From assembly GCA_025352065.1 (NCBI GenBank), contig JANXUC010000056.1, positions 1 through 64,000 of the forward strand: a DNA stretch of 64,000 nt, written 5' to 3'. Positions 3,261 to 21,165 of the stretch are shown piece by piece (position 1 is the first letter of the stretch; each line of letters begins with the position of its first letter). Below the pieces are notes generated by a model. That model made no database searches and was not told the DNA's origin. It saw only the letters and a program-made list of their open reading frames with translations. This DNA is from Acidobacteriaceae bacterium (GTDB lineage Bacteria; Acidobacteriota; Terriglobia; Terriglobales; Acidobacteriaceae). A program made the translations under genes and the position numbers.

Positions 3261-3503
3261 ATGAATTGGGATCAGGTGGAAGGTAAATGGAAGCAGATGA
3301 AAGGCTCCGTTAAGCAGCAGTGGGGAAAGCTCACCGATGACGATCTGGACATCATCGCCGGCAAGAAGGACGAACTTGTGGGCAAGATTCAGGAACGCTA
3401 CGGAATCTCCAAAGAAAAAGCGGAGCAACAACTGAAGGACTGGGTGGCGGTCAACCCGGCTTCCGAAAAAGCCGATCTAGGCCGGGAAAAGAAGGCCAGT
3501 TAG
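3261..3503 (+). CDS. CsbD-family stress protein
   Basis: This is an 80-residue, charged, helical protein of the CsbD family, small cytoplasmic proteins that accumulate under general stress; their biochemical role is unknown. The hallmark MNWDQVEGKWKQMKGSVKQ start and the KLTDDDLDIIAGKKDEL core are present. The start is fixed by AAGGAG at about 3249-3254, a few bases before the ATG. A second copy is at 20815-21063. The gene sits directly ahead of a BON-domain protein on the same strand, 101 bases away, and may be co-transcribed with it. Confidence 0.92.
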   Translation: MNWDQVEGKWKQMKGSVKQQWGKLTDDDLDIIAGKKDELVGKIQERYGISKEKAEQQLKDWVAVNPASEKADLGREKKAS

Positions 3504-6000: not shown

Positions 6001-6207
6001 ATGCCAAGACAGCGCGAAGCAATGAACACCGTGGCTGCGAAAGAAGAAGAAGAGACCTTTCGGCAGTTTAAGGAATTGGTAGCAAACACAAAGTTGAATG
6101 CCATGATGGCGTCGACGCGATGTGTGAATCTTAGCGAAGCACGAACAGAATGGATCACTTCGTCGAGAGACGGATTTGTAGAAGCGTTTCAGTGGGGGCA
6201 CGCATGA
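6001..6207 (+). CDS. Small hypothetical protein, first gene of the GroEL-fragment operon
   Basis: This is a 68-residue, mostly helical and charged protein (VAAKEEEETFRQFKEL) that I do not recognise. Evidence that it is real: an ATG at 6001 with GGAG 8 bases upstream, and a stop codon that overlaps the start of the next gene in an ATGA arrangement (6204-6207), which implies translational coupling. It has no signal peptide or membrane helix. Confidence 0.55.
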   Translation: MPRQREAMNTVAAKEEEETFRQFKELVANTKLNAMMASTRCVNLSEARTEWITSSRDGFVEAFQWGHA

Positions 6208-6818
6208 GCGCCCAACTTGCCATGGTCGAAAGTGGCGTGTTGCGGCAGGTAGGGGAAATGCTTGTCTTTCGCGCAAAGTTAGATGGCGCACAATTTGACT
6301 GTGGATATCTCTCTCCCTACTTCGTGACGCACCCTGAGCGCATGGAGGCTGTGTTGGAGGACGCCTACATACTCATTTACGAAGCGAGCATTAGCCTTAA
6401 GGAGGACATACTCCCCCTCCTCGACCAGATCACGAAACTCGGTAGACCTTTGCTTATAGTTGCCGGGGATGTTCTCGGCGCTGCGCTCGCAGCACTTGTC
6501 GTGAATAATCTACGCGGCGAATTGCGAGTTGCCGCCGTCCGAGCGTCGGGCTCCCGAGCGCAGCAGAAAAAAGTGTTCGAGGACATTGCTGTGCTTACCG
6601 GCGCTAGGATTGTTGTGGAAGGTTCCAGTGTTGAACTGAAAGACATATGTGTTGCCAATTTGGGCCAGGCGAAGCAAGTTACAGTCGGCAAGAACAGCAC
6701 GGCGATTAAAGTGAAGGTGAAGGGCGACCAGCTTTGTTTTCAACCGCAACCGTACAGTCAGCCCAAGGCCGATCGCCTACTTTTACCAAGTCCTGCTCTT
6801 AAGGAGTGCGCGCTGTGA
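6204..6818 (+). CDS. Stand-alone GroEL apical-domain protein
   Basis: The 204-residue product aligns with only the apical, substrate-binding part of GroEL, about residues 188-336 of the E. coli protein. It contains FDCGYLSPYFVTHPERM, LPLLDQITKLGRPLLIVAGD, LAALVVNNLRGELRVAAVRA, EDIAVLTGAR and NLGQAKQVTVGKNSTAI. The ATP-binding equatorial domain and the C-terminal half are absent. Residues that form the polypeptide-binding groove in GroEL (Tyr/Ser/Tyr/Phe of YLSPYF, Leu pairs, VV of LVVNN) are kept. The usual PGFGDRRKA loop is altered to ASGSRAQQKK. The last 45 residues look unrelated to GroEL. Start and stop both overlap neighbouring genes, and the frame is intact, which argues for a retained gene. 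An ATP-independent holding role is inference. Confidence 0.8.
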   Translation: MSAQLAMVESGVLRQVGEMLVFRAKLDGAQFDCGYLSPYFVTHPERMEAVLEDAYILIYEASISLKEDILPLLDQITKLGRPLLIVAGDVLGAALAALVVNNLRGELRVAAVRASGSRAQQKKVFEDIAVLTGARIVVEGSSVELKDICVANLGQAKQVTVGKNSTAIKVKVKGDQLCFQPQPYSQPKADRLLLPSPALKECAL

Positions 6819-7039: not shown

Positions 7040-7225
7040 TTTCAATTTAGTAGATAAGCATGGTCACAATTGCTCAGCTATCTCTATTAACAAGCCTGAT
7101 ACTTAGGGTTGGATGAGAAGTTGCCGGGCTTTCTGGCAGCAGACCTCTTGTGTTCCGATACACAAACAGTTCTCACAACCTACCAGCGACCGTGCGACTT
7201 ACTCGGAGAAAATACAGGAGGCACC

Positions 7226-7957
7226 ATGAAACTATTCAAGAGTTTTGCAGCCGCACTATCCCTAGCCGTACTCTGTATGCTTGCAGTCCCCAGAGCCTCA
7301 GCCGATGACTGGAACCGTGAGACTATTGTTACCTTCAGCGCACCCGTGGAAGTTCCGGGAGTGGGCGCGCAGACTTTGCCAGCTGGCACGTACATCTTCA
7401 AGATTTTAGACAACAATGCTAACCGTCATATAGTCCAGATTCTTAATCAAGACAAGACCCACGTATTCACGACGATCCTAGCTATCCCGAATGTTCGTCT
7501 GAAAACTACTGACAAAACGACCATTACTTTTAGCGAACGCCCCGCAGGACAACCAGAAGCTCTGAAAGCATGGTTCTATCCGGGACGCGACTGGGGAGAA
7601 GAATTTGTCTACACGAAGTCGAGAGCCATGGAGCTAGCCAAGGAAACCAACGAGCCTGTTCTAGCGACTTCAGTAGAGATGGCGGCAGCTCCGGTGGACA
7701 CCTTGAAGACGTTGCCGATTGAGGCCGTTGGAGCCAAAGGTGAGCCCGTCGAATTGACAAAAGTGGTTGAAGCTCCGCCCGCTGCCGTAGAGCCAGCACC
7801 TGTGGTAGCGGCGGCAGCGCCCGCAGTTGAGCCGCAAATGGTAGCGACCAACACTCTACCGAAGACGGCCAGCTCCATGCCGTTGATTGCATTGTTTGGA
7901 TTTCTATCGCTGAGCGTAGGTTTTGGTCTCAAGCTGGCCTCCAAGCGAGATGCCTGA
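7226..7957 (+). CDS. Secreted protein with LPKTA C-terminal sorting signal (sortase substrate)
   Basis: From the ATG at 7226, which has AGGAGG upstream, the 243-residue product has a signal peptide ending in RASA (about residue 26). A conserved domain follows (FSAPVEVPGVGAQTLPAGTY, then IVQILNQDK and ITFSERP), and then a Pro/Ala-rich linker of about 50 residues. The C-terminus is a textbook sorting signal: LPKTA at 211-215, a hydrophobic helix, and the basic tail KLASKRDA. The globular part resembles a common acidobacterial secreted family of unknown function. A class D sortase gene lies 1.1 kb downstream on the same strand, so covalent anchoring by that enzyme is a reasonable inference. Confidence 0.85.
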   Translation: MKLFKSFAAALSLAVLCMLAVPRASADDWNRETIVTFSAPVEVPGVGAQTLPAGTYIFKILDNNANRHIVQILNQDKTHVFTTILAIPNVRLKTTDKTTITFSERPAGQPEALKAWFYPGRDWGEEFVYTKSRAMELAKETNEPVLATSVEMAAAPVDTLKTLPIEAVGAKGEPVELTKVVEAPPAAVEPAPVVAAAAPAVEPQMVATNTLPKTASSMPLIALFGFLSLSVGFGLKLASKRDA

Positions 7958-8055
7958 ATTGGATGAGGCTGCAACGGGGTGGCGGGCGACCGCCGCCTCT
8001 GTTTCAGTTTTTTCAGCATCCACTAAGGTGCCGATTCGACGAAAGTGTCCCGCGG

Positions 8056-9078
8056 ATGACCGCACGACCTCCAGCACGCATGTGCAACAAATGTGGGTGG
8101 GATAGGACGCTGCGATCTCTGGGTGCCTCTCTTGTGCTGATCTTGTTGAGCAGTTTCGCCCAACCTCAAGCGGCTTTATCGTTGCAAAATCAAAAAGCGA
8201 ACGACTACACCATTCACGTAAGTGTGGATGAGGTTGTTCTGCGCGCGACTGCGCAAACCAACAAAGGAGTCCTTGTCTCGGGACTGGGCAAAGATGACTT
8301 CCAGGTTTACGAAGACGGAGTGCTGCAGCAAGTTCGGCATTTTAGTCACGAAGATATTCCAGTTACGGTCGGCCTAGTCATGGACAATAGCGGCAGCATG
8401 CAGCCGAAGCGCGACACCGTGATTGCGGCCGCCATGGCTTTTGCGCGCTCCAGCAACCCGCAGGACCAGATGTTCGTGGTCAATTTCAACGAGAAGGTGG
8501 CGCTTGGCCTTCCGGTCAATAGGGCCTTTACGGATAACGTCGGTGAGTTGGAAACAGCCTTGTCACGGACTCCTGCGACGGGGGAAACGGCGCTGTACGA
8601 TGCGGTTGCTGTAGCTTTGGAGCACCTGCAGAGGGGTAATCGCGACAAGAAGGTACTGATCGTGATCAGCGACGGAGGCGACAACGCCTCCAAGCACAAC
8701 TTGGCGCAGATCAGGGCTATGGCGGCGCACTCCGATGTGATCCTCTACACCATTGGGATTTTTGATGAGGAAGATGCTGACCGGAACCCGCATGTATTGA
8801 AGCAACTGGCCAAGGACACGGGCGGTGAGGCTTTTCTGCCAAAGTCCTTGAAGAGTGTCCCGGCTATCTGTGAGCAAATCGCGCGCGATATCCGAAACCA
8901 ATACGCAATCGGGTATGTACCCAGCAATAAGAAACCCGACGGAACTTACCGAATGATAGAGCTCAAGGCCCAGGCGGCGGGCTACAAGCATTTGATAGTG
9001 CGCACTCGCTCTGGATACTACGCCCTGCCGAAGACTTTACCTGTGGCGAAAAATAAAGCCGATGCCGTCCATAAGTAA
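8056..9078 (+). CDS. VWFA-domain secreted protein (VWFA-related acidobacterial family)
   Basis: From the ATG at 8056 the protein has 340 residues, with a hydrophobic export segment (SLGASLVLILLSSFAQ) near 21-36. An acidobacterial-type lead domain (VSVDEVVLRATAQTNKG, then DDFQVYEDGVLQQ) is followed by a von Willebrand A domain. The metal-binding DxSxS motif is complete (VMDNSGSM, Asp110, Ser112, Ser114), as are TGETALYDAV and VISDGGDN. The start is uncertain between 8056 and 8080. The final residues include LPKTLPVA but no hydrophobic helix follows, so this is not a normal sorting signal. The gene overlaps the sortase start by 17 bases, implying one transcript. VWA proteins usually mediate adhesion or protein assembly. 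Confidence 0.85.
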   Translation: MTARPPARMCNKCGWDRTLRSLGASLVLILLSSFAQPQAALSLQNQKANDYTIHVSVDEVVLRATAQTNKGVLVSGLGKDDFQVYEDGVLQQVRHFSHEDIPVTVGLVMDNSGSMQPKRDTVIAAAMAFARSSNPQDQMFVVNFNEKVALGLPVNRAFTDNVGELETALSRTPATGETALYDAVAVALEHLQRGNRDKKVLIVISDGGDNASKHNLAQIRAMAAHSDVILYTIGIFDEEDADRNPHVLKQLAKDTGGEAFLPKSLKSVPAICEQIARDIRNQYAIGYVPSNKKPDGTYRMIELKAQAAGYKHLIVRTRSGYYALPKTLPVAKNKADAVHK

Positions 9079-9679
9079 GGAACAGGTACTTGCTGAAACC
9101 CGACCCCAGAGTCTGCTTCGTTGGAGCCGCTACGCATTGTGGAGCTTAGGTGTGCTTGCCCTTGGCTATGTCGGATTGGCTGCATTGGATGCGCGGATCT
9201 ATCAGGCGAATGCCGAACTTTTTCTGAACAGCCAGATTCGCGCGCAGCAGAAGCACCCGGGCAGATTTTCTCAAGCGCAATCAGTGCAAGCAGCAGGGGT
9301 ACTTGGACGCATCGTGATCCCCAGGCTTGGAATGTCCATCGCGATACTGGAAGGTACAAAGCCACGCGTGCTGCGGCTCGGAGTTGGGCACATTGAAGGG
9401 ACGGTACTTCCTGGGGAACTCGGCAATAGCGGCATCGCCGGACACCGCGATACTTTCTTCCGCGACCTCCAGGACATCCAGGCTGACGACGAGATTCAGG
9501 TGCAGACTTTAGCTGGCCTGTACCGCTACAACGTAGACTGGGTGAAGGTGGTGGCGCCCGACGACGTCGGGGTTCTGGCGCCATCGGGCGAATCCGCGCT
9601 CACGCTGGTGACTTGTTATCCCTTCTATCTGGTGGGCGCTGCGCCTAAGAGGTTCGTCGTGCATGCGCTAAAGCGCTAG
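9062..9679 (+). CDS. Class D sortase
   Basis: This is a 205-residue cysteine transpeptidase with one N-terminal membrane helix (about 23-43). The catalytic triad is intact: His128 in IAGHRDTFF, Cys185 in TLVTCYPFYLVG and Arg197 in APKRFVV. TLVTC and the LGRIVIPRLGM region match class D sortases. Sortases cleave LPXT-type signals and attach proteins to the cell surface or polymerise them. In diderm bacteria such enzymes are sparse, with roles largely unknown. The clustered LPKTA protein (7226-7957) is the obvious substrate. The TAG stop shares the CTAG tetranucleotide with the stop of the convergent gene at 9676-9876. Confidence 0.93.
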   Translation: MPSISKEQVLAETRPQSLLRWSRYALWSLGVLALGYVGLAALDARIYQANAELFLNSQIRAQQKHPGRFSQAQSVQAAGVLGRIVIPRLGMSIAILEGTKPRVLRLGVGHIEGTVLPGELGNSGIAGHRDTFFRDLQDIQADDEIQVQTLAGLYRYNVDWVKVVAPDDVGVLAPSGESALTLVTCYPFYLVGAAPKRFVVHALKR

Positions 9680-10874: not shown

Positions 10875-11845
10875 ATGAAACCATCGAGAGTTCTAAGTAC
10901 GGCAATCCTTTACTGTCTTGTCGGGGCTATGGCGCCCGTATATGCGCAGGACGAAAAGCAGGATAAACGCCAAGAGCAAGCCAAGCCCGACAAGCAGGAC
11001 AAGCCCGATCAACCGACTAGGCCCCAGAAACAGCAGCAAGATGAGAATCAGCAACAACAGCGCGCCCAGCAACAACAGAATCAGAAACAGCAGCAGGATC
11101 GCGCGCAACAACAACAGAAGCAGCAAGATGAGAATCAGCAGCAATAGCGCGCACAGCAAAATCAGAAGCAGCTGGAACTTGATCGGCAACGGCAACAACA
11201 AAACGCGCAGGGCCAGCAGCAACAGCAGCGGCTTTCACAACAGCGTCAGCAGCAGCTGATAACGCAGCTACAGCAACGCATCACGCAGTACTGCCAGCAC
11301 CAGGACGAGGAACAAGGGGAACGGCAACGCCAAGCCCGGTAGCAACAGGCAGCGCGGCTTCAGGAACAGAATCGCAGAGCCCAGTTCCGCTTTCAGGAAG
11401 AGTACTTAGAGCGGATGCGCCAGCAGCGAATCCGCATCGATGACGACCGTGACCACGACTATGATCGTGACCCGTATTTCTACACGGCTCCGATTTACCG
11501 CTAACAACCGTGGGCAGCTATTACGAGACGAGCCAGTATGGCGCAGACCTGCTACGCCGCGCCGTCAACTACGGCTATGAAGAAGGTTTTCGTACAGGAG
11601 AAGCGGATCGGGAGGATCGCCGGCAATCCGACTATCGGAATGCTTACGCCTATCAGGATGCGACCTATGGCTACACAGGCTACTTCGACCAAGGCGAGTA
11701 CAACTAGTACTTTCGTGAAGGCTTTCGTCGCGGTTATGAAGATGGATTCAGCAGCCATTACCAATATGGCAACAACTCCAACGGCACCGACAGCGCGCTA
11801 GTCGCTATCTTGGGTCCTGGACTTCCAGTCGCTGCACAGAGATAA
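10875..11845 (+). pseudogene. Broken Gln-rich secreted protein with FREGFRRGYEDG-type C-terminus
   Basis: The start is intact: ATG at 10875, signal peptide STAILYCLVGAMAPVYAQ, then a long Gln/Arg/Glu-rich region. The frame is broken by TAG at 11145-11147 and TAG at 11339-11341, both within Gln runs and explained by CAG to TAG changes. It is then broken by a shift of frame near 11500, just after YTAPIYR, and by a TAG at 11705-11707. Reading across the breaks restores a continuous protein: SYYETSQYGADLLRRAVNYG, EEGFRTGEADREDRR, then YFREGFRRGYEDGF, ending at 11845. That C-terminal pattern belongs to a secreted acidobacterial family I recognise but cannot name functionally. Four separate lesions make this a pseudogene. 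Confidence 0.8.
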
Positions 11846-20814: not shown

Positions 20815-21063
20815 CTAACTGGCCTTGCGGTGCAGATCGGTCTCAGTCTTAGCCGTTGCGGTCGCTTGCCAAGTCTTTTTCCATTCCTCGACCTGTTTGT
20901 GCGCTTCTTCTATGGCAATGCCGTAGCGCTCTTGAACCTTGCCAACCAGGCGCTCAACACTTCCTTCAATGACTTTCAAATCATCGTCCGTCAGTTTGCC
21001 CCATTTTTCTTTAACACTACCTACCATTTGATGCCAGTTGCCTTCGATGCGATCACTGTTCAT
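20815..21063 (-). CDS. CsbD-family stress protein, second copy
   Basis: This 82-residue CsbD protein has MNSDRIEGNWHQMVGSVKEK and KLTDDDLKVIEGSVERLVGK. Its C-terminal tail is Ala/Thr-rich, unlike the copy at 3261-3503. GGAG about 10 bases before the ATG at 21063 supports this start over a frame beginning 10 codons earlier. Confidence 0.9.
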   Translation of the reverse strand: MNSDRIEGNWHQMVGSVKEKWGKLTDDDLKVIEGSVERLVGKVQERYGIAIEEAHKQVEEWKKTWQATATAKTETDLHRKAS

Positions 21064-21165
21064 GGTGATGATCTCCTGTAACGAATGATTCACTACTCGC
21101 TAGGTTGAATATATGTGGGAGAGACCGTAGGTGACTGTTCAGAATCGCTCACATTGCACGACTAT

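What the first reader, a model, noticed from the sequence alone, without database searches (positions are those of the whole stretch)
7226..9679. Compact sortase D, LPKTA substrate and VWFA locus in a diderm bacterium
Seen directly: an intact class D sortase (His128, Cys185, Arg197), a secreted protein ending in LPKTA, helix and basic tail, and a VWFA protein with complete MIDAS, all on one strand, the last two overlapping. Sortases are well described in Gram-positives; in diderms their biological role is poorly known. The VWFA protein has an LPKTL string near its C-terminus without a helix, which could be an acceptor or coincidence. The trio might build a surface or periplasmic polymer.
Basis: partly seen in the sequence, partly recalled or inferred. 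Interest (0 to 1): 0.75.

Follow-up and report, generated by a model that had tools for sequence, protein, structure and literature searches.

The report
Acidobacterial sortase, substrate and VWA cassette
Three adjacent genes in an acidobacterium encode an enzyme that attaches proteins to the cell wall, its single dedicated target and a metal-site binding protein; the same trio recurs across the phylum, so it is a real but apparently undescribed protein-anchoring system in bacteria with an outer membrane.

Summary
At 7226-9679 lie an intact class D-like sortase (His128, Cys185, Arg197), a secreted protein ending LPKTA-helix-basic tail, and a VWA protein with a complete MIDAS. The trio is conserved: substrate, VWA and sortase occur in that order on one strand in 65 distinct loci (window included), covering Terriglobia and at least four families of other Acidobacteriota classes. 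VWA and sortase frames overlap by 4 bases in 30 of 58 named loci. In this genome the sortase and the sorting signal are each unique, so it is a one-enzyme, one-substrate system. The LPKTL string in the VWA protein is coincidence: orthologues lack it. Sortase-linked VWA proteins form their own clade and share an invariant, usually lone cysteine (Cys303; 72/72 rows), rare in paralogues (5/76). Stress genes (Ysc84, CsbD) recur beside the trio far above expectation. A polymer is unlikely: no invariant lysine, no class C lid. Most likely the sortase links the substrate through LPKT to peptidoglycan in the periplasm, with the VWA protein as a non-covalent partner; acceptor, location and VWA role are inferred. 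It is a new variant of a known kind (dedicated diderm sortase cassettes).

The parts
7216..7221 (+). AGGAGG ribosome-binding site of the substrate gene
   Evidence: read from the sequence
7226..7957 (+). sortase substrate: signal peptide, all-beta ectodomain (about residues 30-150), Ala/Pro/Val/Glu-rich linker, LPKTA, helix, basic tail
   Evidence: no Pfam family for the ectodomain, no PDB fold match
7856..7870 (+). LPKTA sorting motif (residues 211-215)
   Evidence: sub-threshold hits to NF058670 and TIGR01167
7877..7954 (+). membrane helix and basic C-terminal tail of the sorting signal
   Evidence: AF2 helix 218-242
7963..9078 (+). secreted VWA protein (TIGR03436 subfamily); start codon uncertain, ATG at 8056 or 8080 also possible
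   Evidence: TIGR03436 214.6 bits; VWA fold in PDB search
8383..8397 (+). MIDAS DNSGS (residues 141-145); with Thr209 (8587-8589) and Asp237 (8671-8673)
   Evidence: conserved in trio orthologues
8869..8871 (+). Cys303, near-diagnostic of sortase-linked VWA proteins
   Evidence: 72/72 trio rows (65 distinct sequences) against 5/76 paralogues
9025..9039 (+). LPKTL string of the VWA protein, judged coincidental
   Evidence: not conserved
9062..9679 (+). class D-like sortase with an N-terminal hydrophobic segment; overlaps the VWA gene by 17 bases
9443..9445 (+). sortase His128
9614..9616 (+). sortase catalytic Cys185
9650..9652 (+). sortase Arg197

Best explanation
A dedicated sortase cassette of Acidobacteriota. 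The substrate is exported by Sec and held in the inner membrane by its C-terminal helix (inferred from sequence). The inner-membrane sortase, active site facing the periplasm, cleaves between Thr214 and Ala215 and passes the substrate to an amine of peptidoglycan or lipid II, most likely meso-DAP (inferred from class D sortases). The result is a beta-rich domain on a flexible linker of about 46 residues, tied by its C-terminus to the cell wall under the outer membrane. The VWA protein, translationally coupled to the sortase and without a sorting signal, is a soluble periplasmic partner that binds the anchored domain or the sortase through its MIDAS face. The recurrent stress-gene neighbourhood suggests a role in strengthening the envelope under stress. 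Shown here: gene content, intact catalytic and MIDAS residues, conserved sorting signal, conserved linkage, one enzyme to one substrate in this genome, stress-gene neighbourhood. Inferred: cleavage, acceptor, location, VWA partnership, stress role.
For: Catalytic residues and sorting signal conserved. One sortase and one sorting signal in the genome. Trio order and strand conserved in 58 named loci and 65 distinct loci in all; 51 of 54 substrate loci with at least 4.5 kb downstream carry a VWA and/or sortase gene there, 45 both. Sampled from the sortase side, 14 of 57 loci are trios and 7 more pair a relative of this substrate with the sortase without a VWA gene. Complete trios in five genomes outside the class. 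VWA-sortase 4-base overlap in 30 of 58. Trio VWAs form one clade with an invariant Cys. Class D subfamily 4 sortases are described as recognising LPXTA and often lying next to their substrate (PMC3617157). Ysc84 within about 6 kb in 12 of 58 and CsbD in 9 of 58 named trio loci, against about 0.5% and 0.14% expected from copy numbers.
Against: No biochemistry. The VWA gene is missing from some otherwise similar loci (L056, L057, L101, L110, L179, L182), so it is not essential to the sortase-substrate core. Support for the trio VWA clade is modest (0.57-0.62). The window sortase and sorting signal fall below NCBIfam cut-offs. Enrichment figures treat related loci as independent and use expected rates from copy number, not a matched control.
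Confidence: 0.6

Rival explanations
1. The sortase attaches the substrate to another protein (the VWA protein or another copy of itself), building a covalent heterodimer or short polymer, as class C pilus sortases do.
For: VWA domains occur in tip adhesins of Gram-positive pili (general knowledge); VWA and sortase are translationally coupled.
Against: No lysine is invariant in 94 substrates (best 89/94) and only 1 of 72 trio sortases has a lid-like motif; the VWA protein has no conserved sorting signal; best matches are class D, not C.
Confidence: 0.1
2. The sortase acts mainly as a protease: it releases the substrate from the inner membrane, after which the substrate is exported or stays soluble, with water or a small amine as acceptor.
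For: In diderms another C-terminal sorting enzyme, rhombosortase, processes signals of the same tripartite build without known wall anchoring (PMC3237569, PMC6219818).
Against: The complete His-Cys-Arg set and class D similarity fit transpeptidation; the Ala/Pro-rich linker resembles those of wall-anchored proteins (general knowledge).
Confidence: 0.2
3. The VWA protein is a bystander: one of about a dozen TIGR03436 paralogues in the genome that happens to share the operon.
For: TIGR03436 is expanded in Acidobacteriota (5-21 strong matches per genome); some loci lack the VWA gene.
Against: The same orthologous clade is linked to the sortase in 65 distinct loci across classes, with a near-diagnostic Cys303.
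Confidence: 0.1

Closest known systems
Class D (subfamily 4) sortase / LPXTA proteins of Bacillus, e.g. B. cellulosilyticus (NCBIfam NF058671/NF058670, PMC3617157)
   Same: Best-scoring sortase class; LPxTA motif with Ala at P1'; sortase gene next to its substrate.
   Different: Diderm host; one small beta-rich protein of no known enzyme family as only substrate instead of 27 LPXTA proteins, many of them enzymes; sorting signal LPxTAS-x-PL, not LPxTATN; a VWA gene in the operon; window proteins below the curated cut-offs.
Class GN sortase with its VIT/VWA target (TIGR03784/TIGR03788) of Proteobacteria
   Same: Dedicated one-sortase, one-target cassette in a Gram-negative (PMC3237569); a VWA domain in the locus.
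   Different: There the VWA protein itself carries the LPXTG signal; here the VWA protein is separate, has no conserved sorting signal, and a different protein is the substrate. TIGR03784 95.1 vs cut-off 158.25, TIGR03788 25.3 vs 551.65 bits.
TIGR03436 VWFA-related Acidobacterial domain
   Same: VWA protein is a clear member (214.6 vs cut-off 81.25 bits).
   Different: Trio members form their own clade, are operonic with a sortase and have Cys303.
PEP-CTERM/exosortase and GlyGly-CTERM/rhombosortase systems of diderms
   Same: Same kind of job: a tripartite C-terminal signal processed at the inner membrane.
   Different: Unrelated enzymes and motifs; here a true cysteine sortase.

Membership tests
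Sortase superfamily (PF04203) | Sortase domain with His, Cys, Arg | tested here: met
   104.9 bits vs 26.6; residues present, invariant in orthologues
Class D sortase, LPxTATN-specific (NF058671) | score over curated cut-off (140 bits) | tested here: inconclusive
   137.3 bits, best of all classes but just below; 12 of the 13 other trio sortases score above 140 bits, the thirteenth (G049:C12) 129
Class D sortase (NF033746) | score over curated cut-off (165 bits) | tested here: not met
   128.7 bits
Class D sortase | cleaves LPxTA and transfers to DAP/lipid II | not testable with these tools
   substrate motif fits; no biochemistry
LPxTATN sorting signal (NF058670) | score over curated cut-off (32 bits) | tested here: not met
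   18.1 bits
LPXTG-type tripartite sorting signal (in general) | motif, hydrophobic helix, basic tail, N-terminal signal peptide | tested here: met
   an own profile of this family's tails finds only this one in the genome, E 4e-16
Class GN sortase / marine sortase target (TIGR03784/TIGR03788) | score over cut-off; VWA target carrying the sorting signal | tested here: not met
   95.1 vs 158.25 and 25.3 vs 551.65 bits; no sorting signal on the VWA protein
TIGR03436 acidobacterial VWFA | score over curated cut-off (81.25 bits) | tested here: met
   214.6 bits
Class C (pilus) sortase system | lid motif and pilin lysine acceptor | tested here: not met
   lid-like string in 1 of 72 sortases; no invariant lysine in 94 substrates

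The most novel reading that the evidence does not exclude
A phylum-wide acidobacterial envelope system in which a class D-like sortase covalently ties a dedicated beta-domain protein to peptidoglycan beneath the outer membrane, and a MIDAS VWA protein with a conserved lone cysteine is its functional partner, together acting as a stress-linked wall-to-outer-membrane tether in place of Braun's lipoprotein.
Probability: 0.25. Interest if true: 0.78.

Novelty: new variant of a known kind. Interest (0 to 1): 0.6.

Why it matters
What sortases do under an outer membrane is largely unknown. This cassette is small, conserved and has one obvious substrate, which makes the question directly testable: does a diderm sortase anchor protein to its thin peptidoglycan? 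It would also give a function to one branch of the expanded TIGR03436 VWA family and to a substrate family with no Pfam name and no solved fold.

Tried and rejected
LPKTL of the VWA protein as signal or acceptor: rejected, not conserved. Polymer/pilus: disfavoured. GN sortase membership: rejected by score. Fold identification of the substrate: AF2 model mean pLDDT 81.6, no PDB match at E<=0.001; profile search of PDB sequences empty; weak DUF2911 hits in 5 of 43 members (best E 0.046), a lead only. Cys303 as exclusive to the trio: not quite, 5 of 76 paralogues have Cys, and all five lie in the sister clade. VWA search over the phylum scored only 5 candidates per genome, so its count of 11 genomes is a lower bound. 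Literature: none of the eight searches returned a description of this cassette; the library lacks most subscription papers.

Full report
Observation. The sortase is the only one in the 4.25 Mb genome. It has an N-terminal hydrophobic segment followed by a catalytic domain with His128, Cys185 and Arg197, invariant in orthologues. The substrate has a signal peptide, an all-beta ectodomain, an Ala/Pro/Val/Glu-rich linker (median 46 residues across homologues), LPKTA, a helix and a basic tail. The VWA protein is a TIGR03436 member with a complete MIDAS; its fold search returns VWA domains.

Classification. Among sortase classes the best NCBIfam scores are NF058671 (class D, LPxTATN-specific; 137.3 bits, cut-off 140) and NF033746 (class D; 128.7, cut-off 165), ahead of GN (95), E (92) and C (84). 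The first hit among solved structures is 4d70. I therefore call it class D-like rather than a settled member. Class D subfamily 4 is described as recognising LPXTA and often lying next to its substrate (PMC3617157), which fits.

Linkage. A family-level search found class D-like sortases in 57 of 150 genomes. Around 56 of those sortase genes plus the window, 14 loci have substrate, VWA, sortase in that order on one strand; 7 have a relative of this substrate with the sortase but no VWA; in many of the rest the sortase lies beside another protein with an LPxTA/G-type tail. In all, a gene with such a tail is close by in 37 of 57 (my count). A search starting from the substrate in named genomes gave 80 loci, nearly all acidobacterial MAGs; 58 hold the whole trio, and of 54 with at least 4.5 kb downstream 45 hold both partners and 51 at least one. 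VWA and sortase frames overlap by 4 bases in 30 of 58. After removing duplicates 65 distinct trios remain, the window included. A class-level search found the substrate family in 157 of 399 genomes. Five genomes of the phylum outside the class, in four families, also have the whole trio.

Dedication. A profile of this family's tails finds one sorting signal in this genome, at the substrate, so here it is one enzyme and one target. Relatives with several sortases have several signals.

The VWA protein. Its LPKTL is not conserved and no orthologue aligned has a helix and basic tail there. Trio VWAs form one clade apart from paralogues (support 0.57 and 0.62) and share Cys303 in 72 of 72 rows (65 distinct), against 5 of 76 paralogues with a residue there, mostly Phe; it is the only cysteine after the signal region in 58 of 72. 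What it does is unknown. Because the VWA gene is missing from some loci, I take sortase plus substrate as the core and the VWA as a frequent partner.

Context. The window trio sits among BON, NarL-type regulator, YflT, acetate kinase, phosphoketolase, Ysc84, Dps-like ferritin and CsbD genes (acetate kinase named from its sequence, not scanned). Both CsbD genes of this genome lie in this window. Ysc84 relatives lie within the roughly 12 kb fetched in 12 of 58 named trio loci and CsbD in 9. With about 1.8 and 0.56 copies per genome, about 0.5% and 0.14% would be expected; the nominal p values overstate the case because loci are related. This is the basis for suggesting an envelope-stress role, and it is weak as to mechanism.

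Mechanism. Shown: genes, residues, signal, linkage, dedication. Inferred from class D biochemistry: cleavage after Thr214, transfer to DAP of peptidoglycan. Inferred from the VWA anatomy: non-covalent metal-dependent binding. A polymer is disfavoured because no lysine is invariant among 94 substrates (best 89/94) and class C lids are absent in all but one sortase. Release without anchoring remains a live rival.

Novelty. Dedicated sortase cassettes in Gram-negatives are known (TIGR03784 with a vault-like target carrying LPXTG; PMC3237569). Six sortase genes were tabulated in Solibacter usitatus (PMC3174227). I found no description of this three-gene arrangement. It is a new variant of a known kind: the VWA protein is separate from the sorted substrate, and the substrate family is unnamed and without a solved fold.

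Noticed in passing
window 8869-8871 and 65 distinct trio loci: Invariant, usually lone Cys (Cys303) in sortase-linked VWA proteins at a site where paralogues mostly have Phe; 5 of 76 paralogues, all in the sister clade, also have Cys.
   Followed up: partly
window 6150-6818 (+): Free-standing ORF matching only part of GroEL (PF00118 positions 164-332, apical-domain region; E 2.5e-8, just below cut-off); relatives near a few other substrate loci.
   Followed up: no
Bryobacterales-type loci, e.g. L159:5873-7654, 26 loci: A gene read as malic enzyme from its sequence lies between substrate and VWA genes in the same direction.
   Followed up: no
window 3270-3425 and 20815-21093: The only two CsbD genes of this genome flank the trio; Ysc84 and CsbD recur near the trio in other genera.
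   Followed up: partly
L076, L081: A different sortase with its own LPKTG substrate has a divergently oriented TIGR03436-type VWA gene next to it, possibly an independent sortase-VWA association.
   Followed up: no
L151/L152 (PMUN01000146.1) and L153/L154 (PMOK01000136.1): Two substrate copies face each other on one contig, one followed by the VWA gene and the other by the sortase gene: a split version of the trio.
   Followed up: no
window 10893-11222: Low-complexity Gln/Lys-rich (+) or Leu-rich (-) stretch with overlapping ORFs on both strands.
   Followed up: no
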